64,000 nucleotides of DNA, taken from NCBI RefSeq assembly GCF_017983445.1, contig NZ_JAGOBJ010000010.1:1-64000 (forward strand). Direction: 5' to 3'. Shown here piece by piece: positions 45,248 to 62,147 of the stretch. Made by a program: the position numbers and the translations under genes. How positions within the stretch are numbered: the stretch's first letter is position 1; each line of letters opens with the position of its first letter. The notes under the pieces are model-generated. The model was not told the origin of the DNA, made no database searches, and saw only the letters and a list, made by a program, of their open reading frames with translations. The stretch is from Halomonas sp. Its GTDB lineage: Bacteria > Pseudomonadota > Gammaproteobacteria > Pseudomonadales > Halomonadaceae.

Positions 45248-45274
45248 ATAAAACCATTTAGAGGCGTGCTAGCA

Positions 45275-46501: not shown

Positions 46502-46519
46502 ACCCTTCTTGAGTCAGCC

Positions 46520-46549
46520 AAAAGCCCCAGGCATCGACCTGAGGCTTTT
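46520..46549. terminator. Bidirectional terminator between convergent genes
   Basis: AAAAGCCCCAGG / CCTGAGGCTTTT, 12-bp stem with one mismatch and a 6-nt loop; A and T ends serve both the zinc GTPase and the PepSY gene. Confidence 0.8.
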
Positions 46550-46579
46550 CCAAATAGGGCGTAATAGCAGCGCTTTTGC

Positions 46580-47974: not shown

Positions 47975-48242
47975 ATTTAATTCCCTAAGGATTTAGAGCA
48001 GGCTTTCTATAAACACAGAGTGCTAAAAACTTTTTAATTATTTAAAAGCCGCCCAACTACAGGCAGTACGTTAGACAGCTTTTCAAATACTGGGCGTATA
48101 AAGCATGTGATGATATGTCGCATAAGACTTAGCGCTTTCAGGCGTTAAAAACCAACAAATCATTTATTTCATAATGTGATAGCGGCCACGAACAGGGCTG
48201 CTACAATAACGCCACTTATGAATACCTTGAGGGTTGGATTTG

Positions 48243-48824
48243 ATGGCGCTGTCTCGCTCAGCACGCTTGCTCTACTATCGCTTTACGTTAGCGATGGCAT
48301 GGGTAGCCATGTGTCTGTTATTTGCGGGCCCGCTCATTTCTCAGTTACAGGCCAGTCATAACGCTCACGGCCATCATGGTCATACGCATATTAAGCATGC
48401 CCACAGCCATGGGCACCCGGCTGGTGACGAACATTATACCCACTCTGCCGCTGAGCATGCCGGGCATCCTGTAGCCCTTCAAGCCGCCCCCGCTGCCAGC
48501 TCGCCGGATAAGGCTATCGGTTTATCCCCGTCAAACCCCTTATCGGATTGGCACAATCAGTGCGGCTACTGTGAGTTGTGGCAACACAGCCCGTCGCTTT
48601 CAATCGCGTTACCAGCCATTGCCAGTGACGCTTTTTTGGTACTTGGTGGTAAGTTTCTTGTGCCTCAAGCTGGGGCACTCTTTCAGTATAACTTCCCGCA
48701 TGCATTAACCCGAGGGCCGCCCCTCTTTTCCTATGACCACTTAAAACATCATACGCGAACAGTGTTTATAGTAACGCGTAAAAGTAAAAAAGAAACAGGG
48801 CTGTTAAGCTTTTTAAAAGCATAA
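48243..48824 (+). CDS. DUF2946 family membrane protein with His-rich segment
   Basis: 193 residues from the ATG at 48243, with GAGGG 9-10 bases upstream; a TTG at 48234 is in frame. One membrane segment near residues 15-35, then a histidine-rich stretch of about 40 residues (HNAHGHHGHTHIKHAHSHGH), the family cysteine motif CGYC near 110 and a C-terminal RGPP motif. The family is often found beside copper or iron transport genes. Role unknown; the composition points to metal binding in the periplasm. Confidence 0.78.
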   Translation: MALSRSARLLYYRFTLAMAWVAMCLLFAGPLISQLQASHNAHGHHGHTHIKHAHSHGHPAGDEHYTHSAAEHAGHPVALQAAPAASSPDKAIGLSPSNPLSDWHNQCGYCELWQHSPSLSIALPAIASDAFLVLGGKFLVPQAGALFQYNFPHALTRGPPLFSYDHLKHHTRTVFIVTRKSKKETGLLSFLKA

Positions 48825-49039: not shown

Positions 49040-50353
49040 TTACCGCACCATACTGGGAAGCCACGTCGCCAAGCTGGGGAATACTACCAGCAAGGCCACC
49101 AGCAGCATGGAGCAGACGATATACGGAACGGCTGCCGAATAGATTTCGCGCATGGTAGTGCCGGGCGGGGCAACGCCTTTCATGACGAACAGCAAGAGCC
49201 CAAGCGGTGGTGTCGAGAAGCTGATTTCCAGCGCCAAGAGAACCACGACGCCAAACCAGACCAGATCAAATCCCAGCGCCTGCGCCAGCGGGAAGAAAAT
49301 CGGCACGGTGAGCATCATGATGGAGATCTGCTCCATAAACGTACCCAGTACCAGCAGCACCGCAAACATGGCCAGCAGCATAAGGATGGGTGACAAATCA
49401 AAACTGGTCGCCCACTGAATCAGGCCGCCTGAAGCGCCAGAGAAGCCTAGAAGCTGACTGAACGTGGCCGAACCAAACACGATCAGGTAGGCCATCAAGG
49501 TGACTTTGAGCGCGCCGATAACGGAAAGCTTGAACGCATCCCAGGTCATGCAGCGAAAGATAAACCCTAAAATGATCACACCCAGCGCCCCGAATGCAGC
49601 AGCTTCTGAGGGAGTGGCAAACCCAATGAGCATAAGCCCGACGATAATCACCATCACGCTGAGCATCGGCAGAATATCGGTCACGACAAGACGCAGCTTG
49701 GTGGCGAGCGAGACGGGTTCCAACTCGTAGTTGGGTGCTGCGTCAGGGTCCAGCTTTGTTTGGATGAAAATCGTCACGATATAAAAACCGGCAAGCGTAA
49801 GCCCGGGTAAAATACCAGCGATCAACAAAGCCCCGATATCCACCTTGGCAAGCGTGGCCAGAAGCACTGCCAGCGCCGAAGGCGGGATAATAATGGCCAG
49901 ACCGCCGGTGCCCAGAATAGGGCCAATCGCCATTTTCTTTTTATAGCCGCGCCGCTCCATTTCCGGCACCAGAAGTGACCCCATCAGGGCAGTCGATCCC
50001 ATGGAAGAGCCGCTTAATGTCGAAAATGCCGTTCCACCCACCACCGTTACGTAAGACAACCGGCCAGGTACCTTACCCATCAGTTGATCAATGGCGTTAA
50101 ACATCTTCATGCCAAGCCCAGTACGGAAAAACAGCTCCCCCATCAGCAGAAATAGCGGAATAGGCACCAGGTTAAAGCTGGAAAGCGCGCCGAACCCATT
50201 GTTGAGCATTTGAATAATGCCCGCCTGGCCACCCATGAAGTGCCAGGCCCCAATTACGTTGGCGGCTAAAAAAGCCAGGGCAATCGGGGTACCGATGGCC
50301 ATAAACAGCAGAATGAGCGAAAGTAGAAAAGCGAGTGCAAAGTACCATTCCAT
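49040..50353 (-). CDS. dctM: TRAP transporter large permease DctM
   Basis: 437 residues with about twelve hydrophobic segments, DctM superfamily. FRTGLGMKMFNAIDQLMGKVPG near 76, GTAFSTLSGSSMGSTALMGS near 107 and the GPILGTGGLAIIIPPSALAVLLA block near 145 are characteristic. Na+-driven uptake of an organic acid together with DctQ and DctP. Its start shares one base with the dctQ stop. Confidence 0.95.
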   Translation of the reverse strand: MEWYFALAFLLSLILLFMAIGTPIALAFLAANVIGAWHFMGGQAGIIQMLNNGFGALSSFNLVPIPLFLLMGELFFRTGLGMKMFNAIDQLMGKVPGRLSYVTVVGGTAFSTLSGSSMGSTALMGSLLVPEMERRGYKKKMAIGPILGTGGLAIIIPPSALAVLLATLAKVDIGALLIAGILPGLTLAGFYIVTIFIQTKLDPDAAPNYELEPVSLATKLRLVVTDILPMLSVMVIIVGLMLIGFATPSEAAAFGALGVIILGFIFRCMTWDAFKLSVIGALKVTLMAYLIVFGSATFSQLLGFSGASGGLIQWATSFDLSPILMLLAMFAVLLVLGTFMEQISIMMLTVPIFFPLAQALGFDLVWFGVVVLLALEISFSTPPLGLLLFVMKGVAPPGTTMREIYSAAVPYIVCSMLLVALLVVFPSLATWLPSMVR

Positions 50354-50859
50354 TATTCTTTAATCCCCGCTTCGCCGCTGTGAAGAATGTCGTGACCCAC
50401 TACAAAACGACCAAACTCAATGGCCATCAGAGTAAAGCTGATCGGAAACACAATGGTCAGCATCCACTTGGGCACGAAAAAGGCGCGCACATCATAGTCG
50501 TTGCGCTCTAGGTTAAGCAGGAAAAGATCCAGCCCTTTCCACGCCAAGACGCCGCATACCACCACACAGATAAGCGATACACCGCGGCTTAACACGTTAA
50601 GTATCGGCGGGGGGAGCGCGGCGGTCAGGAGCTCGATATGCACATGCCCTTTCTGACGCACCAGCCAAGGGGCGCCCAATAGCGTGAGGTAGAACATGGC
50701 GTACTCGGTCGACAAAAAATACCAGGCCGAAGGCTGAAGCCCTAAATTGCGAATCACCACTGAAAGCACCACCGCTACCATCAGCCAGACCAGCATGATG
50801 CCCGCCAGTAGCGCCATGCCGTTAAGCAACAGCAGATAACCACGTTGTACGTAGCGCAT
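50353..50859 (-). CDS. dctQ: TRAP transporter small permease DctQ
   Basis: 168 residues, four membrane helices. The DctQ block FYLTLLGAPWLVRQKGHVHIELL near 52 and SLICVVVCGVLAWKGLDL near 95 are seen. Middle gene of dctP-dctQ-dctM. Confidence 0.93.
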   Translation of the reverse strand: MRYVQRGYLLLLNGMALLAGIMLVWLMVAVVLSVVIRNLGLQPSAWYFLSTEYAMFYLTLLGAPWLVRQKGHVHIELLTAALPPPILNVLSRGVSLICVVVCGVLAWKGLDLFLLNLERNDYDVRAFFVPKWMLTIVFPISFTLMAIEFGRFVVGHDILHSGEAGIKE

Positions 50860-50939
50860 AGAAAAACCTAACTCAGTAACTGCCCGAATCAGAGGCGCCC
50901 TAAAACCGGCGCCCCATATGTTTTACAGATTCATGCGTT

Positions 50940-51941
50940 TTATAGATCGTTAAATTTTTCCAGCAGCGCGTCGTAGTGCTCAAGCCCCATGGGATGGCGT
51001 TCCATTTGACGGCGCATACGCTCCCATGTGGCATCGCGGGCGGCATCGGCATAGCGCTGACTGGCTTCGCCTTCCAGAGTGATGACCTGCATACCATCGG
51101 CTTCCAGCTGAGCCTGCTGTTCCAGGGAGCGTTCTTCAAGCTTCTCGGCACTTTCACGCTCGTGTTCGATCGCCACTTCCTGAAGAATCTGCTGAGACTC
51201 TTCGCTTAGCTGGTTCCACTTATTCAGGTTGACGATGACGCCCATGTCGGTGGAGAAGAACGCTGGATCAACGCGGTAGTTTAAAAAGCGGTCCCAGTTA
51301 AGGTCTTTAAGGCCAATCTGGGTCCAGCCCGTGGCATTCACCACGCCGCGCTCAAGGGCGGCGTAGACATCGGTCGTCGGCAGGCTAATGGGTTGAGCCC
51401 CCAGGTAGTCCTGGAAGAAGGCGTCATACACAGGGTTACTGCGCAGGCGCAGGCCAGAGATGCTTAGATTGCCCTCGGCATCCATTTTGGGTTCATCGAT
51501 GGTATACAGGTTGTAGCTCACCCCACTGTCGAACCATCCCAGGTAGTAAGTACCCATTTTTTCCTGGTGGATTTCATTTAGCAGGTCAATCCCGCCATTT
51601 TCACGGGCATAAATCGCGTTGGTATTGGAGGCGACCATGGCGTCGCGCTCAGGCACGGTACCGGCATAAAAACTCGCGGCGGTATAGGCCATATCCACCA
51701 CGCCATTGCGCACGGCATCAGGCTGCTCGGAAAGGCCAATGACTTCAGGGCCACCGCGCACGTTGATCTGCACGATGCCTTCGCCGCGCTCGTTGACCTT
51801 ATCAACGAACTCCAAAAAGCTTTGGGTATAAATCAAGGAGGGAGGAAACGCATGCACGGCGGTGATTTGATCCATCGCCATGGCATAGGTTGAAGACAAG
51901 GCGGTCAGCACGCCAAAAGTTATCACTGTTTTTTTCATCAT
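50940..51941 (-). CDS. dctP: TRAP transporter substrate-binding protein DctP
   Basis: 333 residues from the ATG at 51941 (AGGAGACAG upstream). Signal peptide of about 23 residues (KKTVITFGVLTALSSTYAMA) for export to the periplasm. The family arginine that binds the ligand carboxylate is probably in ISGLRLRSNPVYDAFF near 173; QPISLPTTDVYAALERGVV near 190 and FNLTDMG-like FFSTDMGVIVNLNKW near 232 are DctP blocks. Ligand probably an organic acid. Lies 111 bp downstream of the leuD-like gene on the same strand. Confidence 0.92.
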   Translation of the reverse strand: MMKKTVITFGVLTALSSTYAMAMDQITAVHAFPPSLIYTQSFLEFVDKVNERGEGIVQINVRGGPEVIGLSEQPDAVRNGVVDMAYTAASFYAGTVPERDAMVASNTNAIYARENGGIDLLNEIHQEKMGTYYLGWFDSGVSYNLYTIDEPKMDAEGNLSISGLRLRSNPVYDAFFQDYLGAQPISLPTTDVYAALERGVVNATGWTQIGLKDLNWDRFLNYRVDPAFFSTDMGVIVNLNKWNQLSEESQQILQEVAIEHERESAEKLEERSLEQQAQLEADGMQVITLEGEASQRYADAARDATWERMRRQMERHPMGLEHYDALLEKFNDL

Positions 51942-52052
51942 CTGTCTCCTGCACAAGGTGGTCTGTTATATCGTCGTTATTGTTGCGAATCCGTTGCGGC
52001 AAGCGTGCTTACTGTTCTTATAAATGGGTAAATCTTGAGGACAGCCTAAGCG

Positions 52053-52691
52053 CTACCCTTTACTAATAATGTTCGCTTCGGGCGGCTGGGGCGCTGCCCA
52101 TGAAAACGTTCGTGCGTAGTCCTGGGCAAAACGGGTAATCGTTTCTGCATGCTGGCGGGTCATATCAATATCATCCCAGCCGTTCAGAAGCTTGGTACGC
52201 CAAACAGGGCTAACGCTAAACTCAACATCCACTTCGGCGACGCGAATACGCTGCTCTACCAGATCCACCTGAATCTTGGCGGGTTGATCACTCAGCGCGG
52301 CAAGCAGCCGTTCGGCATCGTCTTCTTCTACCACGGCGGGCAACAAGCCGTTATTCACCGCATTGGATGCAAAAATATCGCCAAAGCTTGGAGCGATAAC
52401 ACACCGAAAGCCGTAATCGACCAATGCATATACCGCAGCCTCCCGGGAGGAACCCGCGCCAAAGTTGCGGCGACTTACCAGCACCTCAGCATCACCAGCA
52501 CCCGGACGATGCAGGATAAACTCAGGATCAGGCGTGCCCTGCTCGTCGTGACGAACGTCATAAAGCAGAAACTGACCGTAGCCGACACTGCGCGGCTCTT
52601 TCATGAAGCGGGCGGGGATCAGCTGGTCGGTATCCACATTGGCGGCCGGTAGCGCGCAGCCCAGGGCCTCTAATACGGTCAAAGGTTGCAT
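52053..52691 (-). CDS. LeuD-like dehydratase small subunit, probable catabolic paralogue
   Basis: 212 residues. Small (swivelling) domain of an aconitase-family hydro-lyase. N-terminal AANVDTDQLIPARFM is the LeuD signature. The substrate loop of true LeuD, NFGCGSSREHAPWAL, reads NFGAGSSREAAVYAL (near residue 74), which changes residues next to the substrate. leuA and leuB are absent, and the operon contains a TRAP transporter, so I doubt a role in leucine synthesis. Starts on the last base of the leuC-like stop. Confidence 0.85.
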   Translation of the reverse strand: MQPLTVLEALGCALPAANVDTDQLIPARFMKEPRSVGYGQFLLYDVRHDEQGTPDPEFILHRPGAGDAEVLVSRRNFGAGSSREAAVYALVDYGFRCVIAPSFGDIFASNAVNNGLLPAVVEEDDAERLLAALSDQPAKIQVDLVEQRIRVAEVDVEFSVSPVWRTKLLNGWDDIDMTRQHAETITRFAQDYARTFSWAAPQPPEANIISKG

Positions 52692-54118
52692 TAGTGAGCT
52701 CCTGTCGCGTTGGCTTGGGAAGACAGCGTGCGTATATCGGTGAGCCGCCCCCGTATGGCGGCGGCAGCCACCATGGCAGGCGACATCAAGTGGGTACGTG
52801 CGCCAGGCCCCTGGCGGCCTTTAAAGTTACGGTTGGTAGTTGATGCACAGCGCTCGCCGCTGGCAACCAGGTCACCGTTCATGCCTACGCACATGGAGCA
52901 CCCTGAATGGCGCCACTCAAGACCCGCTTCGATAAAGATGCGGTCCAGCCCTTCGGCCTCCGCCTGGATCTTCACCAATGTAGAGCCCGGCGACACCATG
53001 CCAGGCACCCGGCTTTTGTGGCCTGCCAACACGCTGGCCGCCGCACGCAAATCTTCAATCCGGGCATTGGTACACGAGCCGATAAACACACGGTCGATCA
53101 CAATGTCAGTCAGTTTCTGGCCCGCCGTTAACCCCATGTACGCCAAGCTGTCGCGCGCCTGGCGCGCTTTGGCAGGATCGCTAATCTGCTCGGGTTCAGG
53201 TACCGCCTGATCGATGGGTAACGCCTCTTCAGGAGACACGCCCCAGGTGACGGTTGGGGCGATTTCATCGGCGTGTAGCGTGACCTCAAGATCAAATTGG
53301 GCTTCCGGGTCGCTGTGCAGCGTTGACCAGTAAGCGCAGGCCTGCTCGAAAGTCTCACCTTTCGGGCTCCAGGGTCGGTCACGCAGATAGTCGAACGTGG
53401 TTTGATCCGGGGCAATCATGCCACAGCGCCCACCACCTTCAATGGAAAGGTTACACAGCGTTAGCCGGGCTTCCATGGAGAGTGAGCGGATAGCCTCGCC
53501 TGCGTACTCAATCGCGTAACCGCGGGCGCCGTCAGCACCCAGCCGGGCGATCCAGGTAAGCGCGATATCTTTCGCGGTCGTTCCTGAAGCAAGCTGACCC
53601 TCAATGGTAATGCGCATTACCTTGGGCTTGCTCTGCCAGAGGGTTTGCGTTGCCAGAACATGCGCCACTTCTGAGGCGCCTATGCCAAAGGCGATACTAC
53701 CGAATGCGCCGTGGGTGGCGGTGTGGCTGTCACCGCAGACCATTACTAACCCAGGCTGAGTGAGTCCCTGTTCAGGGCCCATCACGTGAACAATGCCCTG
53801 TCGTGGATCATCCAGGCCAAACAGGGTGACCCCGTGACGCTGGGTATTGTTCGAGAGCTGTTCGATCATGGAGCGCACTTTCGGATCCGCCACACTTTCA
53901 AGATCGCGAGACTGAGTGGGCACGTAGTGGTCTGCGATACCGAAGGTCAGGTCGGGCCGGGCAACGGGCAGCTGGCGTTCGCCTAACTTGTTGAACGCAT
54001 GAAAAGAGCCTTCGTGAACGAAGTGGCGATCAATCCATAAAAGGCTTTGCCCGCTCTCGCTGCGATGAATCTCGTGGGCACGCCAGACCTTATCAAACAG
54101 CGTTGTGGGTGTACTCAT
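52691..54118 (-). CDS. LeuC-like dehydratase large subunit, probable catabolic paralogue
   Basis: 475 residues from the ATG at 54118. Aconitase superfamily; the three [4Fe-4S] cysteines are in FIGSCTNARIEDL (near 355) and SGCSMCVGMNGDL (near 415). Highly similar to LeuC in VCGDSHTATHGAFGSIAFGIG (residues near 135) and GERCASTTNRNFKGRQG. The N-terminus differs from E. coli LeuC in its substrate region (VHEGSFHAF, ADHYVPTQS). Dimethylmaleate hydratase and citraconate/maleate hydratases use the same two-subunit form. A GntR-type palindrome lies about 160 bp upstream. Confidence 0.85.
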   Translation of the reverse strand: MSTPTTLFDKVWRAHEIHRSESGQSLLWIDRHFVHEGSFHAFNKLGERQLPVARPDLTFGIADHYVPTQSRDLESVADPKVRSMIEQLSNNTQRHGVTLFGLDDPRQGIVHVMGPEQGLTQPGLVMVCGDSHTATHGAFGSIAFGIGASEVAHVLATQTLWQSKPKVMRITIEGQLASGTTAKDIALTWIARLGADGARGYAIEYAGEAIRSLSMEARLTLCNLSIEGGGRCGMIAPDQTTFDYLRDRPWSPKGETFEQACAYWSTLHSDPEAQFDLEVTLHADEIAPTVTWGVSPEEALPIDQAVPEPEQISDPAKARQARDSLAYMGLTAGQKLTDIVIDRVFIGSCTNARIEDLRAAASVLAGHKSRVPGMVSPGSTLVKIQAEAEGLDRIFIEAGLEWRHSGCSMCVGMNGDLVASGERCASTTNRNFKGRQGPGARTHLMSPAMVAAAAIRGRLTDIRTLSSQANATGAH

Positions 54119-54280
54119 TGTATTAACTCGTTGTATCGGCACGGTCTACGTTGGAATCATTTTCAGGCAATTATTCTTAGCGTTTGATAAACCTTCATTA
54201 TCGCGCTGCCTTACCTCACCCCAATACAACTAGCGCACTATCACAACACAGGTCAAATGTATTTTTTGTATTTTTAAATC

Positions 54281-54298
54281 TGTATTAAACTTAATACA
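54281..54298. promoter_or_regulatory. GntR-type operator upstream of leuC-like gene
   Basis: TGTATTA-AACT-TAATACA, a perfect 7-bp palindrome with a 4-bp spacer, between the gntR stop and the leuC-like start. Two further TGTATT half-sites lie beside it (54258 and 54267). Identical in arms and spacing to the element at 55202. Confidence 0.7.
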
Positions 54299-54324
54299 TT
54301 AAAATCGTAAGCTCGACCTCACCA

Positions 54325-55128
54325 TTACCCTTCATTTTGGGTAGGCATTCCGCCCACTTTGGGCTCCCAGTAGCGCGAGTTGTCGTCGCCGTTTCGCTCC
54401 AGGTCAATCTGGAAACGGTAGCGGTCAGGACGATACAGCGCCTCCAGATGCTCCACTCCCCGACCCTGTTCGTCGTATACCACGCGGGTCAATGAAATCA
54501 GCGGCGAACCTACGGCCACGTCTAACGCTTCGGCAATCTCGTGATTGGCCAAGGTAGCGGAAATGGATTGGGAAGCGTGGTCGACCTTTACACCACTACG
54601 CTCCAACAGCACGAACAGAGGCGTATTCGCCAGATCCATTTCGTTATAGTGCAGTGCTACCGACTCCGGCACATGGGTCACCAGATAGGAGAATGGCTTG
54701 TCATTGACCATACGCACCCTCACCGAGCGCTGCACTTTAACGCCATGAGCCATCCCCAGAAGCTCGCGAATCATTTCCGGTGGCAACGCATAGGCAAACT
54801 CAAGCAGCCGCACCTGAGACGCCTGGCTCATCTTGACCATGTTGGGCAGCAGGTTTGACACGCTGGCAGTCATTACCGTGGCATCCAGCGGGTGTTCCAG
54901 CACTACCGTACCCACCCCCGCCTTGCGTTCAACCAGCCCTGAGGACTGCAGCGCTTCCATGGCACGCCGAACGGTAACGCGCGATACGCCATGCTGCTCG
55001 GCCAGCTTGTTTTCACCCGGCAGCTTACTGCCTGCCGGTAACCGGCCGCTGAGGATGGCGTCTTTCAACAGCAGATAAATTCGGTGGGATTTTGTACCGC
55101 CCATCGCCGCAGGCTGCGCCTCACTCAT
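54325..55128 (-). CDS. GntR family regulator, HutC/UTRA subfamily
   Basis: 267 residues. N-terminal winged helix (about 12-78) with the GntR block LPGENKLAEQHGVSRVTVRRAMEAL, then a UTRA ligand domain (about 95-245) with SVRVRMVNDKPFSYLVTHVPE and SLTRVVYDEQGRGVEHLEALYRPDRYRF. UTRA domains bind small effectors that release DNA. It sits between two arms of the catabolic locus and probably controls both and itself. Confidence 0.93.
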   Translation of the reverse strand: MSEAQPAAMGGTKSHRIYLLLKDAILSGRLPAGSKLPGENKLAEQHGVSRVTVRRAMEALQSSGLVERKAGVGTVVLEHPLDATVMTASVSNLLPNMVKMSQASQVRLLEFAYALPPEMIRELLGMAHGVKVQRSVRVRMVNDKPFSYLVTHVPESVALHYNEMDLANTPLFVLLERSGVKVDHASQSISATLANHEIAEALDVAVGSPLISLTRVVYDEQGRGVEHLEALYRPDRYRFQIDLERNGDDNSRYWEPKVGGMPTQNEG

Positions 55129-55171
55129 TCATGCCGCTCCTTTTGCTGTTGTTAAAAAAAACACGTCAGGC

Positions 55172-55199
55172 TTGACGCGGGGATAATAATAGACATAAA
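55172..55199 (+). promoter_or_regulatory. Possible promoter of the plus-strand catabolic operon
   Basis: TTGACG at 55172-55177 and CATAAA at 55194-55199, 16-bp spacer. The palindrome at 55202 would then cover the transcription start. Confidence 0.35.
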
Positions 55200-55201
55200 A
55201 A

Positions 55202-55219
55202 TGTATTACATATAATACA
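55202..55219. promoter_or_regulatory. GntR-type operator in the gntR/NTF2 intergenic gap
   Basis: TGTATTA-CATA-TAATACA; the arms extend to 8 bp (ATGTATTA / TAATACAT, 55201-55220). Same arms and spacer length as the site at 54281. Placed to control the divergent gntR and six-gene operon. Confidence 0.75.
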
Positions 55220-55342
55220 TATAGAAAGACAACTAATAACACAACTGCTGTCGTTTAACGTCATTATTGCAGAATCATCGTCCTGCCAGTAGCGCAGCTG
55301 GCGAGGCTTTAAACGAGCGGCCAACCGTATGGAAATTTTACG

Positions 55343-55738
55343 ATGACTAACGCGGCACCGGCTAACGTAACAGACAGCGATTCGCAGCGCGTGCGCGCTT
55401 TTTTAAATGCGCTGGAAATGCGCAATCTGGCAAAAGCGGAACCGTTTCTTGCGCCAGGCGCTGTCATGCAATTCCCCGATTCGCCACCCATGTACCAGCT
55501 AAGCGAGCTGGTGGAGTGGGCCAAAACCCGTTACCGCCATGTTCACAAAACTTTTCACGCCATCGACAGCGTCAGCAAGGAAAACCACACCATCGTGTTT
55601 TGCCACGGTGAACTGCACGTGGAATGGCTGGACGATACGACATCAACCGGCGTGCGCTTTATCGACCGCTTTGAATTAACCGATGGCCTGATTACCCGTC
55701 AGGACGTTTGGAACGATCTGGCGCTGATTTCACGCTAA
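55343..55738 (+). CDS. NTF2/SnoaL-like protein
   Basis: 131 residues of the SnoaL/NTF2 fold, an alpha-beta cone used by small hydratases, isomerases and cyclases. RVRAFLNALEMRNLAKAEPFLAPGAVMQFP near 17 and the repeated strand pairs IVFCHGELHVEW and GVRFIDRFELTDGLITRQDVW near 90-120 fit. Charged residues lie inside the predicted cone, so it could be an enzyme. First gene of the plus-strand catabolic operon; its stop codon is inside a short tandem repeat. Confidence 0.75.
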   Translation: MTNAAPANVTDSDSQRVRAFLNALEMRNLAKAEPFLAPGAVMQFPDSPPMYQLSELVEWAKTRYRHVHKTFHAIDSVSKENHTIVFCHGELHVEWLDDTTSTGVRFIDRFELTDGLITRQDVWNDLALISR

Positions 55739-55781
55739 CGCCCTGATTCATCACTAACGCTCCGACTCAATCGCTAACGCT
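55733..55781. repeat. 19-20 bp tandem repeat across the NTF2 gene stop codon
   Basis: Units begin CGCTAACGCCCTGATT (55733), CACTAACGCTCCGACTC (55752) and CGCTAACGCT (55772). The first contains the stop TAA of the NTF2-like gene, so two extra copies of the gene end fill most of the gap to the lyase gene. Confidence 0.6.
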
Positions 55782-55805
55782 TAACTGGAAAATAACGAGA
55801 CGTTT

Positions 55806-56699
55806 ATGACACGCCAACAAACCGCTACACATAAGCCAACGCAGCTCAAGCAACTGCTCCATGAAAAGCCCATTGTCGTAGCGCCTGGCGTGTTCGATGC
55901 CTTGGGTGCGTCACTGGCTGAGCAGGCAGGATTTGATACGGTCTACCTTTCGGGTGCGAGCCTTGCCTACACTCAGCTGGGTCGACCCGATATTGGTCTT
56001 TTAAGCATTACCGAAATCTGCACCGCCATGGCGCATATTCGCGAGCGCACCAATCTATCGGTGGTCGTGGATTGCGATACCGGTTTCGGTAACGCCATGA
56101 ACGTGATGCGCAGTGTGCATATGCTGGAGCGCTCAGGCGCCAACGCTATTCAGCTTGAAGACCAGACCTACCCCAAGCGCTGCGGCCATCTGCGCGGCAA
56201 GACACTGGTTTCCAAAAGCGAAATGGTCGGAAAATTGCATGCAGCCCTGGACGCCAGGGAAAGTGATAAGACGCTGATCATTGGCCGAACCGATGCCTTG
56301 GGTGTGGAAGGCACCGACAGCGCCATCGAGCGTGCCCAGGCTTATTTCGAAGCCGGCGTGGATATGCTGTTTATCGAAGGCATTCGTAGCGATGACGATA
56401 TCCAGAAAATCATGGCGCAGTTCAAAGGCAAGGTGCCCATCATGGCCAACATGGTAGAGGGTGGTGATACGCCGCTGCAGAATGCCCAGACGCTCGAAGC
56501 GTTGGGCTTTTCGCTGGTCATTTTCCCCGGTGCTTTGGTGCGAGCGATCACTCATATGGCCAGCCGCTTCTTTGCCACACTCAAGCAGGATGGCACCACC
56601 GACGCTTTCCGCGACCAGATGCTTGATTTCAAACAGCTCAACGACTACCTGGGCACCCAGGCGATGCTGGAGCTTGGCGAGCAGTACGATAACCGCTAA
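55806..56699 (+). CDS. Isocitrate lyase/PEP mutase superfamily lyase, dimethylmalate-lyase-like
   Basis: 297 residues. TIM-barrel enzymes that cleave C-C bonds of 2-hydroxy acids next to a carboxylate. VDCDTGFGNAMNVMRSV near 80 carries metal-binding aspartate; AIQLEDQTYPKRCGHLRGK near 115 is the gating loop with the catalytic cysteine (KRCGH), which separates lyases from PEP mutase; IIGRTDAL near 158 and GTVPIMANMVEGG-like VPIMANMVEGGDTP near 210. PrpB (2-methylisocitrate lyase) and 2,3-dimethylmalate lyase are the closest types. With the LeuCD-like pair, the latter is favoured. Confidence 0.85.
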   Translation: MTRQQTATHKPTQLKQLLHEKPIVVAPGVFDALGASLAEQAGFDTVYLSGASLAYTQLGRPDIGLLSITEICTAMAHIRERTNLSVVVDCDTGFGNAMNVMRSVHMLERSGANAIQLEDQTYPKRCGHLRGKTLVSKSEMVGKLHAALDARESDKTLIIGRTDALGVEGTDSAIERAQAYFEAGVDMLFIEGIRSDDDIQKIMAQFKGKVPIMANMVEGGDTPLQNAQTLEALGFSLVIFPGALVRAITHMASRFFATLKQDGTTDAFRDQMLDFKQLNDYLGTQAMLELGEQYDNR

Positions 56700-56763
56700 A
56701 GCCTTGATCATTGATAGGCGTGGCGAGTAATAAGTTTCAATAAATAAAATTCAGGAGACGACG

Positions 56764-57429
56764 ATGCAGACCACCGATAAAACAGCCAAAGAGATCTTTT
56801 TTGACGTCATGGCCAACCCCCAGCGGGTGCCGTTCGGCTTTGGCAAAAAGGCCGTTTTGGTCAACGTGGACCCGCAAAAGGCCTACACCCGCACCGATCT
56901 TTTCAAGACCGCGTATGAAACCGACCCAAAACAGCTGGAGTACACCAACCAGCTGGCACGCGGTTTTCGGGAGAAAGGCTGGCCGGTGGTCTGGACACAC
57001 GTCGCTTTTCTGGACTCGGCCGAGGATGCAGGCGTCTGGGGCACGCGCACCGATACGCCGGATTCCTTGCAAAACATCAAGTACGACTCGGAGCGCGCCG
57101 AGTTCGACGAGCGCTGTGAGATCGACCGCCGCCGTGACGTTATCTACACCAAGCGCATGCCCTCGGCGTTTTTTGAGACGCCGCTGCAGTCGCTGCTGGT
57201 CTGGCATCAAGTCGATACCGTGATCATTACCGGCGGCTCAACGTCGGGCTGCATTCGCGCCACTGCGGTAGAAAGTCTCTCACGCGGGTATCGCACGATT
57301 GTGCCCATGGAGTGCGTATCGGATAAACACGAAAGCTACCACTACGCCAACCTGACCGACCTGCACTTGAAGTATGCCGATGTGATGCCCGTGGCCGATG
57401 TATTGACCTGGCTTGACGGCAACGCGTAA
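56764..57429 (+). CDS. Isochorismatase-family amidohydrolase
   Basis: 221 residues. The Asp-Lys-Cys catalytic triad of the cysteine-hydrolase family is present: VNVDPQKAYTR (Asp near 36), YTKRMPSAFF (Lys near 124) and GGSTSGCIRATAVESL (Cys near 160). Closer to N-carbamoylsarcosine amidase and maleamate amidohydrolase than to isochorismatase, since no ArCP domain or enterobactin genes occur. A half-amide or carbamoyl group is the likely substrate. Followed by two polysaccharide-deacetylase-like genes. Confidence 0.85.
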   Translation: MQTTDKTAKEIFFDVMANPQRVPFGFGKKAVLVNVDPQKAYTRTDLFKTAYETDPKQLEYTNQLARGFREKGWPVVWTHVAFLDSAEDAGVWGTRTDTPDSLQNIKYDSERAEFDERCEIDRRRDVIYTKRMPSAFFETPLQSLLVWHQVDTVIITGGSTSGCIRATAVESLSRGYRTIVPMECVSDKHESYHYANLTDLHLKYADVMPVADVLTWLDGNA

Positions 57430-57457
57430 CGCATACCAAGGCAGCGAGGAGCCGGTA

Positions 57458-58459
57458 ATGAAAGAGAGCTTAAAAGAGAACTTGAAAGAGAACTTGAAAG
57501 AGAACTTAAAAGAGAGCCTGGACGTATACGACTACTGGGCCTACGACCAGCGCCCCAGGATCGAGTGGCCGGGCGGCGCCAAGGTGGCCTTCTGGGTCGC
57601 GCCCAATATCGAGTATTACGAACTCGACCCGCCCCAGAACCCCAGCCGCAAACCTTGGCCCCACCCACACCCTGCGGTACCAGGCTACAGCATCCGTGAT
57701 TACGGCAACCGGGTGGGCCACCAGCGCCAGATGGCACTGTTGGACAAGTACGGCATTCGCGGATCGATATCGCTGTCGACGGCGCTGTGCGAGCACCATC
57801 CCGAAATTATCGACATGTGCCGCGAGCGCAACTGGGAGTTCTTCAGCCACGGCATCTACAACACGCGCTACACCTACGGCTTAAGTGAAGCGCAAGAGCG
57901 GGCGATGATCCGCGACAGCATGGAAACCATTCACCGCCATACGGGGCAAGCCTGCGCGGGCTATCTGGCGCCTGCGCTCTCCCACTCTGAGCGCACGCTG
58001 GATCTGTTTGCCGAGGTGGGCGAAGAACTGTTTGGCGCCAACGGCGGGCTTTATACCTGCGACCTGTTCCACGACGACCAGCCCACGCCCGTCAGGGTGC
58101 GCTCCGGCAAGCGGTTTATCTCCATGCCCTACTCGCTGGAAATGAACGACACCATCGTGTATGCGGTAAATAAGGTGGAGCCGCGCCAGTATTCGACCAT
58201 GTTAAAACGCCACTTTGACCGCCTGTATCTGGAAGGGGCCGAGTCCGGCACGGTGATGTGCATTCCCACCCACAATTATCAGGTGAGCTGCCCGCACCGC
58301 ATAAAGGCCTTCGAAGAGGCGCTTGAGTACATTACCGGCCATCCGGATGTCTGGGTCGCCACAGGGCGTGAAATTGCCGACTACTACATGACCCATTATT
58401 ACGACGGTGCGCTCGACAGCATGGCAGCCCAGGCCGTCACCGCAGGCAGGGAGAGATAA
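57458..58459 (+). CDS. Polysaccharide deacetylase family hydrolase (PuuE/allantoinase/imidase type), first copy
   Basis: 333 residues from the ATG at 57458, preceded by GAGGAGCC. The first 20 residues are a repetitive lysine/glutamate helix made of LKEN/LKES units. The barrel starts at VAFWVAPNIEYYELDPP; YSIRDYGNRVGHQRQMALLDKYGIRG, FFSHGIYNTRYTYG and GYLAPALSHSERTLDLFAEVG follow. The NodB TFDDG motif of true sugar deacetylases is not seen. PuuE-type allantoinase and cyclic imide hydrolase belong to this branch. Paralogous to the next gene. Confidence 0.82.
   Translation: MKESLKENLKENLKENLKESLDVYDYWAYDQRPRIEWPGGAKVAFWVAPNIEYYELDPPQNPSRKPWPHPHPAVPGYSIRDYGNRVGHQRQMALLDKYGIRGSISLSTALCEHHPEIIDMCRERNWEFFSHGIYNTRYTYGLSEAQERAMIRDSMETIHRHTGQACAGYLAPALSHSERTLDLFAEVGEELFGANGGLYTCDLFHDDQPTPVRVRSGKRFISMPYSLEMNDTIVYAVNKVEPRQYSTMLKRHFDRLYLEGAESGTVMCIPTHNYQVSCPHRIKAFEEALEYITGHPDVWVATGREIADYYMTHYYDGALDSMAAQAVTAGRER
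57470..57517 (+). repeat. In-frame 12-bp tandem repeat encoding LKEN units
   Basis: Four units (TTAAAAGAGAAC type) encode LKEN-LKEN-LKEN-LKES directly after the start MKES. Units differ only at third codon positions and the last Asn/Ser codon. Confidence 0.85.
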
Positions 58460-58463
58460 CGCC

Positions 58464-59396
58464 ATGGCGCTTAACGATGACTACCTCGACTACCCGCTGC
58501 GCCGCCACGGCTACGACCATAAGCGTTTTGAGTGGTCGATGCTGAGCGAACGCCCACCCATTACCTGGCCGGAAGGCAAGACTCTGGCGGTATGGATCAA
58601 TATTTCACTCCAGCTCTATCCGCTTAACCAGCGCGGCGAGCCGTTCAAGGTGCCTAACGGCATGACCATGCCCTACCCGGACCTGCGCCACTTCTCGCTG
58701 CGCGATTACGGCAACCGGGTGGGCATCTATCGGGTACTCAAGGCACTGGCGGCACACAATATTACCCCTACCTTTGCGATCAACGCGCAGTTGGCGGAGC
58801 AGACGCCTTACCTGGTTCAGCGCTTGAAAGAGCATGGCGGCGAATTTATTGCCCACGGCTGGAACATGGACCACCTGCACTACGGCGGCCAGCCCCTCGA
58901 AGAAGAGGCCGAGCTGGTCAAACGCTCGGTGGACACCCTGCGCCGCGTGACCGGCCAGCCCGTTCGCGGCTGGCTTAGCCCTGCCAAGCATCAGAGTTTC
59001 AACACGCTGGATCTTCTGGCCGAGAACGGTATCGAGTACTGCGCCGATTGGGTCAACGACGACATGCCCTATGCGTGTCATACCCAGACGGGCAGCCTCA
59101 CCATGATGCCGCTGGCGACTGAAATCGAAGACCAGTTCGTGATGAGCCAGAACCTGCACTCGGAAGATTCGTGGGTAACGCAGGTAAAAGACGCCTTCGA
59201 TTTTGTGTTGGAAGAGTCTCGCGAGCACGGTGGACGCCTGTTTGCATTGAATCTGCACCCTTGGCTTGTGGGCCAGCCTCACCGCATTGCCTGCCTGGAA
59301 GAAGTGCTGGCGCATATCAGCGGGCATAACGAAGTGTGGCAGGCTCCGGCAGGTGAGATTCTCGATGCGTTTAGTGCGGCAACGGAGCAAGCATAA
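58464..59396 (+). CDS. Polysaccharide deacetylase family hydrolase, second copy
   Basis: 310 residues from the ATG at 58464 with GGGAGAG upstream; the frame is open into the previous gene but lacks a start signal there. Same layout as the first copy without the repetitive N-terminus: LAVWINISLQLYPL, HFSLRDYGNRVGIYRVLKAL, EFIAHGWNMDHLHYG, GWLSPAKHQSFNTLDLLAENG, NLHPWLVGQPHRI. Histidines in AHGWNMDH and NLHPW are likely metal ligands. The two may form a heteromer or act on successive substrates. Confidence 0.82.
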   Translation: MALNDDYLDYPLRRHGYDHKRFEWSMLSERPPITWPEGKTLAVWINISLQLYPLNQRGEPFKVPNGMTMPYPDLRHFSLRDYGNRVGIYRVLKALAAHNITPTFAINAQLAEQTPYLVQRLKEHGGEFIAHGWNMDHLHYGGQPLEEEAELVKRSVDTLRRVTGQPVRGWLSPAKHQSFNTLDLLAENGIEYCADWVNDDMPYACHTQTGSLTMMPLATEIEDQFVMSQNLHSEDSWVTQVKDAFDFVLEESREHGGRLFALNLHPWLVGQPHRIACLEEVLAHISGHNEVWQAPAGEILDAFSAATEQA

Positions 59397-60820
59397 TGGC
59401 TATCGTCCCCTACACTGAGCACCATGTATTTGACGCGCATGTGCCGCTTTTAATCATTGGCGCCGGTGCCTGCGGTTTGGTGGCAGCACTGGCCGCGCAT
59501 GAGGCGGGGGTTGAACTAGCCGTGCTTGAGCGCGATGCGCTGCCCCGCGGCAGTACGGCGATGTCATCGGGTTTCATTCCGGCCGCCAATACGCGGTTTC
59601 AAAAAGCGCTTGGCGTCAACGACACGCCCGCCGACATGGCCGAAGATATTCAGCATAAAAACGGTTATGAAGCCGACCCCGCCATCGTTGACCTGCTGGC
59701 GACGTCGTCAGGCCCTGTGATCGAGTGGCTGGCGGACCAGTATAAGTTGCCCTTTGAACTGGTGGAGGGCTTCTTATACCCAGGCCATACCCATCTGCGC
59801 ATGCATGCCACTCCCAGGCGTACGGGGGAGGAGCTGATGGGCGCCCTGTTAAGCGCCGCTGAAACGGCAGGTATCGATATTCTTACCCAGGCCCGGGTGG
59901 TAGACCTTCACGTGGACGCTGCCCAGCGGGTGCGCGGCGTGACGCTCGAACGCCCGGACGGCAGTCGCGAAAACATCAGCTGCGAAGCACTGATACTGGC
60001 GTGTAACGGCTATGGAGGTAACCCCGAACTGGTGGAACGCTATATTCCCTCGCTCAAACATGCGCTTTATTATGGCCATGAGGGCAACCAGGGCGATGCT
60101 CTGTTATGGGGTCAGGCGATGGGTGCCAGCACTAGGGATCTGGCCGCCTGCCAGGGGCATGGTTCTCTCGCCACGCCCCATCAAACCCTGATCAGTTGGG
60201 CGGTGATGATGCAAGGGGGCGTTCAGGTTAACGTGCAGGGCGCGCGATTTTCCAATGAACACGGCGGCTATTCAGAACAAGCCGCCAGGGTGCTGGCCCA
60301 GCCTGACAAAATTGCCTGGAACCTCTTTGACGAGCGTATTCACCAGTCGGTACTGGCGTTTGAAGACTATCGCAACGCGTTCGATGCCGGCGCCGTACGC
60401 CGTTTCGAAAACCTGGAAACGATGGCCGCTGGCCTGAACCTGCCGCTTGACACACTGCAAAGCACGTTTGCCGAGATGCACCAACTGGTCCAGGATCAAA
60501 AAGCCGACCCGTTTGGGCGCGCCTTTGATCCAGCCAGCCTGTTGAAGCCGCCCTACTACGCCATTCGCGTAACGGGTGCCTTGTTTCATACCCAGGGCGG
60601 ACTTGAGATCAATGTGCAGGCACGCGTACTCGATCAACAGGGCCAGGTGCTGCCCAATCTGTTTGCAGCGGGCGGGGCGGCGCGCGGTGTGTCAGGCTCC
60701 AACGATAGCGGCTACCTTTCCGGTAATGGTTTACTCAGCGCGGTCGTGCTGGGGGCGGTCGCCGGTAAACATGCCGCTGAGCTGCTTCGCTTGAAACTTC
60801 ACTCGGCGGTGCTGCCCTGA
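59396..60820 (+). CDS. FAD-binding dehydrogenase of the fumarate reductase/ketosteroid dehydrogenase family
   Basis: 474 residues. Dinucleotide motif LLIIGAGACGLVAALAAHEAG near 18, FAD_binding_2 blocks RGSTAMSSGFIPAANTRFQ near 50 and the C-terminal FAAGGAARGVSGSNDSGYLSGNGLLSA near 425. No signal peptide, heme or cytochrome domain, so a cytosolic flavoprotein. The family removes or adds hydrogens across C-C bonds next to carbonyls; in this operon a desaturation to an unsaturated acid or imide is plausible. Starts on the last base of the preceding stop (TAATG). Confidence 0.85.
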   Translation: MAIVPYTEHHVFDAHVPLLIIGAGACGLVAALAAHEAGVELAVLERDALPRGSTAMSSGFIPAANTRFQKALGVNDTPADMAEDIQHKNGYEADPAIVDLLATSSGPVIEWLADQYKLPFELVEGFLYPGHTHLRMHATPRRTGEELMGALLSAAETAGIDILTQARVVDLHVDAAQRVRGVTLERPDGSRENISCEALILACNGYGGNPELVERYIPSLKHALYYGHEGNQGDALLWGQAMGASTRDLAACQGHGSLATPHQTLISWAVMMQGGVQVNVQGARFSNEHGGYSEQAARVLAQPDKIAWNLFDERIHQSVLAFEDYRNAFDAGAVRRFENLETMAAGLNLPLDTLQSTFAEMHQLVQDQKADPFGRAFDPASLLKPPYYAIRVTGALFHTQGGLEINVQARVLDQQGQVLPNLFAAGGAARGVSGSNDSGYLSGNGLLSAVVLGAVAGKHAAELLRLKLHSAVLP

Positions 60821-60904: not shown

Positions 60905-61963
60905 TTAAGGAATAATGCGTTCTGCGCGCAAGCGGGTAAACAGATCGAAAAACGCGCCGCGGGTTTCGCGGAAGTGGTCAAAGCCGTAATCGCGGGACTT
61001 GGTCACATCGTTGACGCACTCAAGCTCACGGCCAAGGTCGGCATCGGAGTGCCACCAGGAAGCCAACTTGGTGACATCGGCTTCAACAAGGTCATGCTTT
61101 TCAGCGATGTCGGCCCAGATCGGCGCGCTATCGGCCATTTGCGTTTCCAGCGGCAGCGGCGTTTCTGGGCAGTCGGCAACTTCCAGCTCAAAGAACTCGC
61201 CAATTTCACGCCACATCCGGCGCCAGCGGAAAACGTCACCGTTAACGGTATTGAACGCTTCGTTATGCGCGCCTGGCGTTGTCGCTGCCCACTCCAGTTG
61301 ACGCGCCAGCACCAGTGCATCGGTCAGGTCGGTCAACGCATTCCATTGAGTCTGCGAACCTGGGAAGGTAAATGGCTTGCCGGTTGCCTTGCAGATGGAA
61401 GCATAAACTGCCAGCGTTACGCCCATGTTCATGGCGTTACCCAGGGCATAGCCGATCACGGTATGCGGGCGGTGCACGTTCCAGCTGAAACCATCGCGTT
61501 CGGCGGCGGCGAACATGGTGTCTTCCAAGGCGTAGTAGAAGTTCTCACCCGGCACGCGCGGCGCGGATTCACGAAACGGTGTTTCGGTCTTGCCGCTGCC
61601 ATAGCTCTCAAAAGAGCCCAGGTACTGCTTGGTGCCGGTTACCAGCGAAACATGCTTGATTTTTGCGCCCTGCAAAGCATCCAGCGTGTTCTGCATCATC
61701 GCACCGTTGGCCTCAACGTTAGCCTTTTCGCTATCACGCTTGATCCAGGTGCAGTAAAACACGTGTGTGATAGGTAAATCGGCCAAGGCCTTCTCGGTGG
61801 CTTCACGATCCAGCAGATCAGCGGCAACAGGGATAATGCCGGTCTGGGTAGTGGGGCGGCGTGATAAACCATAAACGGTCCAGCCGCTGGCATTGAGATA
61901 GCTTGCCAGGTTACCGCCGGTAATACCGGTCGCGCCTACTACAAGAGCATTGCCTTTACGCAT
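60905..61963 (-). CDS. PRISE-type short-chain dehydrogenase/reductase
   Basis: 352 residues from the ATG at 61963, with AAGGAGTC upstream. Atypical SDR related to plant progesterone 5-beta-reductase and iridoid synthase, NAD(P)H-dependent 1,4-enone reductases. LVVGATGITGGNLASYL binds the cofactor. PRISE signatures: HVSLVTGTKQYLGSFESYG with the lysine (near 110), and ENFYYALEDTMF with the tyrosine (near 148). FNTVNGDVFRWRRMW near 235 is also typical. Divergent LysR regulator next door. Confidence 0.88.
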   Translation of the reverse strand: MRKGNALVVGATGITGGNLASYLNASGWTVYGLSRRPTTQTGIIPVAADLLDREATEKALADLPITHVFYCTWIKRDSEKANVEANGAMMQNTLDALQGAKIKHVSLVTGTKQYLGSFESYGSGKTETPFRESAPRVPGENFYYALEDTMFAAAERDGFSWNVHRPHTVIGYALGNAMNMGVTLAVYASICKATGKPFTFPGSQTQWNALTDLTDALVLARQLEWAATTPGAHNEAFNTVNGDVFRWRRMWREIGEFFELEVADCPETPLPLETQMADSAPIWADIAEKHDLVEADVTKLASWWHSDADLGRELECVNDVTKSRDYGFDHFRETRGAFFDLFTRLRAERIIP

Positions 61964-62016
61964 TATCGACTCCTTATCCAAACGAGATAACCCGCTGCAT
62001 TCAACATTGCTTTGAA

Positions 62017-62066
62017 AGAGTTAGCTCTGAGAAAAACTCTGAAACGACAAACGCTGTGTTCGTTTC
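62017..62066. promoter_or_regulatory. Two inverted repeats in the SDR/LysR intergenic gap
   Basis: AGAGTT-N12-AACTCT (62017-62040) and GAAACGA-N12-TCGTTTC (62041-62066) lie back to back, both with 12-bp spacers. Candidate LysR-type binding sites between divergent genes. Confidence 0.4.
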
Positions 62067-62147
62067 GGTTATGGCTTATTCTGGATAGCTATCAGAGTTG
62101 CTACAATTGGAAAAATCGCAAATCTTTATTGCTTAAGGCGCAACTCA

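What the first reader, a model, noticed from the sequence alone, without database searches (positions are those of the whole stretch)
49040..60820. A two-arm catabolic locus that may degrade cyclic imides or substituted maleates
Seen: minus arm gntR, leuC-like, leuD-like, dctP-dctQ-dctM; plus arm NTF2-like, isocitrate-lyase-family lyase with KRCGH, isochorismatase-family amidase with Asp-Lys-Cys, two polysaccharide-deacetylase-family hydrolases, FAD dehydrogenase. Known: a LeuCD-type hydratase plus a dimethylmalate lyase act in sequence in Eubacterium barkeri nicotinate fermentation; maleamate amidohydrolase (NicF) is isochorismatase-family; to my recollection a Pseudomonas putida cyclic imide hydrolase and PuuE allantoinase are in the polysaccharide deacetylase branch. 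Inference: ring opening of a cyclic imide, release of ammonia from the half-amide, hydration of the substituted maleate, cleavage to a 2-oxo acid plus a carboxylate. Dialkylmaleimides from tetrapyrrole breakdown (such as ethylmethylmaleimide or hematinic acid) would fit all steps. I know of no described pathway with this full set.
Basis: partly seen in the sequence, partly recalled or inferred. Interest (0 to 1): 0.8.

Follow-up and report, generated by a model that had tools for sequence, protein, structure and literature searches.

The report
Regulon for degrading substituted maleimides
A salt-loving bacterium carries one self-contained set of twelve genes that looks built to take up and break down ring-shaped nitrogen compounds of the kind left over when heme or chlorophyll decays, a breakdown route for which my limited searches found no description.

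Summary
All twelve genes are present at the stated coordinates. They look like one regulon: a perfect operator-like palindrome (TGTATTA-N4-TAATACA) stands on each side of gntR, and the 3.9 Mb genome holds no other exact copy. In relatives (up to 2 mismatches) 40 of 42 two-arm loci have at least one site and 33 have both.

The core is an isochorismatase-like amidase, PuuE1 and PuuE2. Around it, in 111 loci sorted into 60 groups, the commonest neighbours are LeuC (24 groups), the isocitrate-lyase-family lyase (21) and class III CoA-transferase (21); an HMG-CoA-lyase-like enzyme follows further down (12). Unlike hydratases and two unlike cleavage routes thus serve the same core.

New evidence favours hematinic acid over ethylmethylmaleimide: glutaryl-CoA dehydrogenase lies beside the locus in five lineages, and hematinic acid would give pyruvate plus glutarate. 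But a pre-stated linkage test found no new case, and 12 of 71 genomes showed no such enzyme, so the substrate stays open.

By score PuuE1/PuuE2 lie nearer PuuE than HpPgdA, the imidase-related branch. No activity is shown.

The parts
49040..50353 (-). dctM, large membrane subunit of a TRAP transporter
   Evidence: PF06808 E 9.4e-73; present in 45 of 80 loci
50353..50859 (-). dctQ, small membrane subunit of the TRAP transporter
   Evidence: PF04290 E 9.2e-21
50940..51956 (-). dctP, TRAP solute-binding protein; Arg of the LRSNP stretch kept in at least 97% of 46 sequences, window included
   Evidence: PF03480; conservation. That this Arg binds a carboxylate is recalled from other TRAP proteins
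52053..52691 (-). leuD-like hydratase small subunit
   Evidence: TIGR00171 180.7 bits, cut-off 116.25
52691..54142 (-). leuC-like hydratase large subunit; a second LeuC, 54% identical, lies on another contig of the genome
   Evidence: TIGR00170 665.5 bits, cut-off 560.25; genome copy G000:C16
54281..54298 (.). operator-like perfect palindrome 1 (TGTATTA-N4-TAATACA), between leuC and gntR
54325..55128 (-). gntR, HutC/UTRA-type regulator
   Evidence: PF00392 and PF07702
55202..55219 (.). operator-like perfect palindrome 2, between gntR and the plus arm
55343..55738 (+). SnoaL/NTF2-like protein; listed in 37 of 46 window-type loci by my reading and not detected in the other 9 (one of them, L058, a short contig), so probably dispensable
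   Evidence: PF12680 E 1.9e-8; 30 of 80 in the overlap-filtered count
55806..56699 (+). ICL/PEP-mutase-family lyase, proposed substituted-malate lyase; KRCGH and NMVEGG motifs
   Evidence: PF13714; prpB model below cut-off; motifs
56764..57429 (+). isochorismatase-family amidase, proposed half-amide (maleamate-type) amidase
   Evidence: PF00857; TSGCxRA motif shared with 3ot4/3uao and N-carbamoylsarcosine amidase 26st
57413..58459 (+). PuuE1, proposed imide ring-opening hydrolase (an ATG lies at 57458; the listed start is TTG)
   Evidence: PF01522; nearest solved structure by sequence PuuE 3cl6, 81 bits
58407..59396 (+). PuuE2, partner of PuuE1, 34% identical to it
   Evidence: TIGR03212 119.8 bits, below cut-off 424.6
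59396..60820 (+). FAD protein of the flavocytochrome c/fumarate reductase group; proposed to desaturate dihydro (succinimide or succinate) forms
   Evidence: TIGR01813 261 bits, below cut-off 285.45; its role is inferred

Best explanation
The locus is one GntR-controlled catabolic regulon for a carboxylated, carbon-substituted maleimide or the maleate made from it. Inferred route: the TRAP transporter takes up the acid; PuuE1 with PuuE2 open the imide ring to the half-amide; the isochorismatase-family amidase releases ammonia and leaves a substituted maleate; the LeuCD pair adds water across the double bond to give a substituted malate; the ICL-family lyase splits this into a 2-oxo acid and a carboxylate. 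The FAD enzyme would feed in saturated (succinimide or succinate) forms; the SnoaL-like protein is an unknown accessory. Shown here: gene content, conservation, the shared palindrome, and CoA-transferase plus HMG-CoA-lyase-like genes standing in for the lyase in relatives. Inferred: every reaction and the binding of GntR. Most likely substrate: hematinic acid, giving pyruvate plus glutarate.
For: One regulon: 2 palindromes in the window, both exact, 0.08 expected at up to 2 mismatches; only these two are exact in the whole genome, and the 6 weaker sites are no more than the 7 of the reversed control; both sites in 33 of 42 two-arm loci, at least one in 40, and 2 matches elsewhere in 837 kb. 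Chemistry: the neighbour count puts LeuC, ICL and CaiB on top and HMGL in 12 of 60 groups. In Acidiphilium CaiB and HMGL lie beside the core and no ICL-family frame was found in the 24 kb; Sphingomonas pJE1 has both routes and two LeuCD pairs; the LeuC of Burkholderia, Alkalimonas and Paraferrimonas is only 34-36% identical to the window's. The lyase has NMVEGG, close to NMIEGG of petal death protein 1zlp, and not the NxTEFG of methylisocitrate lyases or of the genome's own PrpB-like copy.
Against: LeuCD passes the curated scores for isopropylmalate dehydratase, so sequence alone does not show a new substrate. By the overlap-filtered count only 51 of 80 loci have both a LeuCD gene and an ICL or HMGL gene in the fetched flanks; two window-type loci from MAG contigs (L082, L088) show no LeuCD between dctP and gntR. 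Of 31 genomes with the core, 14 have the lyase at 46% identity or more and 7 have no match at E 1e-30. Some core-linked lyases lack EGG (NGG in L118, L099, L112). Glutaryl-CoA dehydrogenase lay within 15 kb in 2 of 31 genomes (24 with a hit; one of the two already known, before the 15 kb rule was written) and, with the rule written beforehand, in 2 of 40 (35 with a hit), both already known, so 0 of 38 new ones. Shewanella has it about 18 kb away. 7 of 31 and 5 of 40 genomes had no hit at E 1e-90. In the window's genome it lies on another contig, G000:C10, far from any operator-like site. The linkage was noticed after the fact. PDP-type lyases, as recalled, may favour the other regioisomer (2-oxoglutarate plus propionate).
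Confidence: 0.63

Rival explanations
1. Same pathway chemistry, but the substrate is a neutral dialkylmaleimide such as ethylmethylmaleimide or dimethylmaleimide; the lyase gives pyruvate plus butyrate, or 2-oxobutyrate plus propionate.
For: The lyase has the petal-death-protein-like NMVEGG stretch; by recall that enzyme cleaves 2-ethyl-3-methylmalate and dimethylmalate. No residue binding a tail carboxylate was identified. The pre-stated test found no new link to glutaryl-CoA dehydrogenase.
Against: Glutaryl-CoA dehydrogenase beside the locus in five lineages; a TRAP transporter, which by recall carries carboxylates, in 45 of 80 loci.
Confidence: 0.2
2. The amidase/PuuE core opens a hydantoin, ureide or lactam, and the LeuCD/lyase genes belong to a separate acid pathway that merely shares the regulator.
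For: PuuE1 scores nearest to PuuE allantoinase and PuuE2 to the same group; relatives of PuuE1 at about 38-52% identity sit beside hydantoinase/oxoprolinase, amidase, nitrilase or a molybdenum hydroxylase.
Against: LeuCD and cleavage genes are the commonest neighbours of the core across many groups and in unlike versions; both arms share one palindrome; both PuuE-like proteins score far below the allantoinase cut-off (106.7 and 119.8 against 424.6).
Confidence: 0.12
3. The locus degrades a pyridine-type ring that reaches a maleamate, as in nicotinate pathways.
For: Amidase motif TSGCxRA shared with the 3ot4/3uao entry, by recall maleamate amidase NicF; a FAD monooxygenase, second isochorismatase, alpha/beta hydrolase and aldehyde dehydrogenase set lies near the trio in L081, L101 and L110.
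Against: No ring-oxidising enzyme was recognised in the window locus; no further exact operator site in the genome; by recall maleate itself needs no lyase of this family.
Confidence: 0.05

Closest known systems
Dimethylmaleate hydratase plus 2,3-dimethylmalate lyase of Eubacterium barkeri nicotinate fermentation (recalled)
   Same: LeuCD-type hydratase followed by a PEP-mutase/ICL-family lyase
   Different: Here joined to imide-opening and half-amide genes and a TRAP transporter, in proteobacteria; substrate unknown
HxnM/HxnN of Aspergillus nidulans nicotinate breakdown (passages of PMC9304392)
   Same: Cyclic imide hydrolase related to HpPgdA and PuuE, followed by an amide hydrolase
   Different: HxnM is 64% identical to a P. 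putida cyclic imide hydrolase homologue and structurally closest to HpPgdA; the window pair scores nearer PuuE, and its amidase is isochorismatase-family
PuuE allantoinase
   Same: Best-scoring solved relative of PuuE1 (81 bits); third for PuuE2 (88 bits, after 3s6o and 1z7a)
   Different: Far below the curated PuuE score; paired; next to LeuCD and lyase genes; a separate PuuE-like gene exists in the genome
Methylisocitrate lyase PrpB and petal death protein
   Same: Same lyase family; PrpB is the best NCBIfam model (293 bits), 1zlp the second best solved structure
   Different: Below the PrpB cut-off; EGG instead of TEFG stretch
Itaconate/citramalate-type CoA-transferase plus lyase routes (recalled)
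   Same: CoA activation of a substituted malate followed by lyase cleavage, as proposed for the loci with CaiB and HMGL
   Different: The window has the direct ICL-family lyase instead

Membership tests
Isopropylmalate dehydratase LeuCD | curated LeuC and LeuD scores | tested here: met
   665.5 against 560.25 and 180.7 against 116.25
Isopropylmalate dehydratase LeuCD | role in leucine synthesis | tested here: inconclusive
   A second LeuC (54%) lies elsewhere in the genome, and the window copy shares a palindrome-flanked regulator with catabolic genes; role not shown
Dimethylmaleate hydratase | hydration of dimethylmaleate | not testable with these tools
   needs enzyme assay
Methylisocitrate lyase PrpB | curated PrpB score | tested here: not met
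   293.1 against 354.4
Methylisocitrate lyase PrpB | NxTEFG stretch | tested here: not met
   NMVEGG in the window; NITEFG in the genome's own PrpB-like copy
ICL/PEP-mutase-family lyase | K[KR]CGH loop | tested here: met
   KRCGH at residue 124
PuuE allantoinase | curated PuuE score | tested here: not met
   106.7 and 119.8 against 424.6
P. putida/HxnM-type cyclic imide hydrolase | closest similarity to the HpPgdA branch | tested here: not met
   40 and 44 bits to 3qbu against 81 and 88 to 3cl6; the P. putida and HxnM sequences themselves were not compared
Isochorismatase-family half-amide amidase (NicF, CSHase like) | Asp, Lys, Cys positions and TSGCxRA | tested here: met
   kept in at least 95% of 93 sequences and aligned with 3ot4 and 26st
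Isochorismatase-family half-amide amidase (NicF, CSHase like) | curated score of a named amidase or hydrolase model | tested here: not met
   three weak NCBIfam matches only, best 37.9 against 195; biuret amidohydrolase 28 against 370; RutB 20.1 against 377.95

The most novel reading that the evidence does not exclude
This is the terminal pathway for tetrapyrrole-derived hematinic acid (3-(2-carboxyethyl)-4-methylmaleimide): ring opening and deamidation give methyl-cis-homoaconitate, the LeuCD pair makes 2-methylhomoisocitrate, and the PrpB-like lyase cuts it to pyruvate and glutarate. That is a one-carbon-longer copy of the last steps of the 2-methylcitrate cycle. The mass balance closes (C8H9NO4 + 3 H2O = C3H4O3 + C5H8O4 + NH3), and glutaryl-CoA dehydrogenase takes the glutarate. 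The route would be widespread in marine and soil bacteria and would close the nitrogen and carbon loop of heme and chlorophyll decay.
Probability: 0.33. Interest if true: 0.82.

Novelty: new variant of a known kind. Interest (0 to 1): 0.62.

Why it matters
Chlorophyll is made and degraded on a scale of 10^12 kg a year, and hematinic acid was found in leaves (PMC7318184, passages). None of the papers listed in my searches (listings and starts of abstracts, often only a part of the hits) describes how bacteria use such one-ring leftovers. A defined regulon with a readable operator-like site, a testable transporter and candidate enzymes makes the question directly testable. The paired PuuE-like proteins may also be a general two-part hydrolase for cyclic imides and amides.

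Tried and rejected
Rfam scan of the window: only a tRNA at 1499-1582, nothing in the locus. Homarine catabolism was considered; the listing (10 of 606 papers) showed no homarine gene set. HutC-type GTNTANAC operator: no site near gntR; reading the two intergenic stretches then showed the TGTATTA palindrome. An apparent isochor-puuE1 fusion in L085 (543-codon frame) was dropped, because the amidase is listed as a separate frame there. Link of the neighbouring PepSY/DUF2946-like genes to the DUF2946/TonB/PepSY genes near the trio in Comamonas: no protein match at E 0.01. Structure prediction was to be used on the conserved unknown protein c6 of loci without the two-arm form, but was switched off; fold searches were therefore not run. 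Phage collection: no match. Plasmid collection with the whole locus: three short partial matches. The class-wide survey (369 genomes) gave only two new genomes with a close PuuE1, and these were not followed further.
Full report
WHAT IS THERE. The twelve genes are present as described. The source is most likely a Halomonadaceae genome; the closest related locus is Vreelandella zhanjiangensis, 95% over PuuE1. The genome also holds, elsewhere, a second LeuC (54% identical), a PuuE-like gene (32%) and a PrpB-like lyase (37%), so the window copies are extra paralogues.

ONE REGULON. Two exact palindromes TGTATTA-N4-TAATACA lie at 54281-54298 and 55202-55219, one in each intergenic region beside gntR. 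The window has no other match at up to two mismatches; 0.08 were expected from 100 shuffles and none of the shuffles had two. In the whole genome these are the only exact sites; 6 further sites with two mismatches compare with 7 for the reversed control pattern. In 42 two-arm loci from other genomes (up to two mismatches) at least one site is found in 40 and both in 33, with 2 matches elsewhere in 837 kb. These 42 are related: 19 from the Halomonas/Vreelandella group, 9 Billgrantia, 14 others; both sites in 18, 6 and 9 of them. L064 and L069 have neither. In 13 of 14 loci of other layout scanned in the same script no site was found; one (L144) had two weak matches. The two arms therefore look like one closed regulon; that GntR binds the site is inferred.

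CONSERVED CORE AND EXCHANGEABLE PARTS. I took the best 80 of 420 confirmed PuuE1 relatives. PuuE2 is listed with PuuE1 in 80 of 80 and the amidase in 79 of 80; a strict, overlap-filtered test gave 74 and 71 of 80. In 293 genomes of the order, 31 had a match at E 1e-30, 22 of them two matches, and in all 22 the two lie side by side; the other nine have a single match of 31-34% identity. 46 of the 80 loci are of the window's type, defined as dctM present, or FAD protein plus lyase. Clustering of all non-core neighbours in 111 loci (60 groups) ranks LeuC 24 groups, lyase 21, CaiB 21, FAD protein 15, TRAP parts 14, an unknown protein c6 14, GntR 13, HMGL 12. On an Acidiphilium plasmid HMGL, amidase, PuuE1, PuuE2, LeuC, LeuD and FAD run in one direction with CaiB divergent, and no ICL-family frame was found there. 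On Sphingomonas pJE1 both cleavage routes and two LeuCD pairs are present. On the Burkholderia plantarii plasmid the LeuCD pair is of the homoaconitase/DmdB-like group, 36% identical to the window's LeuC; Alkalimonas and Paraferrimonas are at 34% and a Saprospiraceae MAG at 29%. Recruitment of unlike hydratases and unlike lyases to the same core is the best evidence that the steps form one path. Against it: by the overlap-filtered count 51 of 80 loci have both a LeuCD gene and an ICL or HMGL gene in the fetched flanks; two window-type MAG loci, L082 and L088, lack LeuCD between dctP and gntR; of 31 genomes with the core, 14 have the lyase at 46% identity or more and 7 have no match at E 1e-30.

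RESIDUES. The lyase keeps KRCGH and has NMVEGG, close to petal death protein 1zlp (NMIEGG), while the methylisocitrate lyases shown have NxTEFG. Not all core-linked lyases have EGG: a second, KKCGH-type group has NGG. The amidase keeps its Asp, Lys and Cys positions in at least 95% of 93 sequences and TSGCxRA as in 3ot4 and N-carbamoylsarcosine amidase. PuuE1 is nearest PuuE, PuuE2 nearest 3s6o, 1z7a and PuuE; both score lower with HpPgdA. HxnM is 64% identical to a P. putida cyclic imide hydrolase homologue and structurally closest to HpPgdA (PMC9304392, passages; see also PMC8478523 and PMC3084791, passages).

WHICH SUBSTRATE. Glutaryl-CoA dehydrogenase was noticed in two loci and then looked for. 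The plasmid copy of B. plantarii is a clear member (735 bits to 3gnc; 574 bits to 1sir, by recall human) and stands in one same-strand row, CaiB, dehydrogenase, ETF alpha, ETF beta, porin, lyase, FAD, LeuD, LeuC, GntR; its CaiB is closest to succinate-glutarate CoA-transferase (542 bits, below the cut-off of 750). The enzyme is also near in three of three Marinobacter loci (one gene beyond dctM), Alkalimonas (which has a second copy elsewhere) and Paraferrimonas, and in G245 as a LysR, dehydrogenase, CaiB set convergent with the FAD gene. Glutarate follows from a carboxyethyl-substituted maleimide such as hematinic acid, and not from ethylmethylmaleimide. Against this: it lay within 15 kb in 2 of 31 genomes (24 with a hit; G146, already known as L077, and G245). 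Shewanella has the gene about 18 kb away on the same contig. 7 of 31 and 5 of 40 genomes lack a hit at E 1e-90. By hand estimate about 0.6% of genomes would show such closeness by chance, so five lineages are unlikely, but they were picked after the fact and the new test added none. The TRAP transporter, found in 45 of 80 loci, also points to an acid (recalled property of TRAP proteins).

PRINT. Searches for imidase/half-amidase, dimethylmaleate hydratase, petal death protein, maleimides, hematinic acid with bacteria, and the gene set together listed no paper that describes this locus or bacterial use of hematinic acid. Only the open-access library was searched; several searches had more hits than were listed (for example 15 of 110, 12 of 119, 20 of 56), and apart from the passages named I saw only listings and starts of abstracts. 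PMC7318184 (passages) reports hematinic acid in leaves, where maleimides were not detected, and the yearly scale of chlorophyll turnover.

VERDICT. No enzyme activity was tested.

Noticed in passing
57458-57520: The N-terminus of PuuE1 carries a short repeated peptide (ENLK units); most relatives align only from about residue 29-32 on.
   Followed up: no
L086:5799-6545, L083, L091, L105, L118 and others: An unknown protein c6 (about 240 aa, weak DUF3108 similarity) recurs near the trio in 14 of 60 groups, in part with a glyoxalase-like protein, a cupin, c8 and a methyltransferase-like protein c9; possibly the upstream part of the pathway.
   Followed up: partly
L147:6231-12824 (Arthrobacter crystallopoietes plasmid pLDW-10): A PuuE-like gene and its neighbour of the same size, without the isochorismatase-family amidase, between a molybdenum hydroxylase and an asparaginase-like gene: another amidase may replace the isochorismatase type.
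   Followed up: partly
L081, L101, L110: A module of FAD monooxygenase, second isochorismatase, alpha/beta hydrolase and aldehyde dehydrogenases lies near the trio in three genera, as in pyridine-ring breakdown.
   Followed up: no
60905-63098: An NAD-dependent epimerase-like gene and a LysR regulator flank the locus; in L046 and L049 the same pair lies at the other end.
   Followed up: no
45266-48824: A CobW-like GTPase, a PepSY-like membrane protein and a DUF2946-like histidine-rich protein (names by recall from the sequence) precede the locus; Comamonas L117 has DUF2946/TonB/PepSY genes near its trio, without detectable similarity.
   Followed up: partly
L114 (Acidiphilium plasmid), L116/L163 (Burkholderia plasmid): The pathway genes lie near insertion sequences on plasmids typed as conjugative, so they may move between bacteria.
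   Followed up: no
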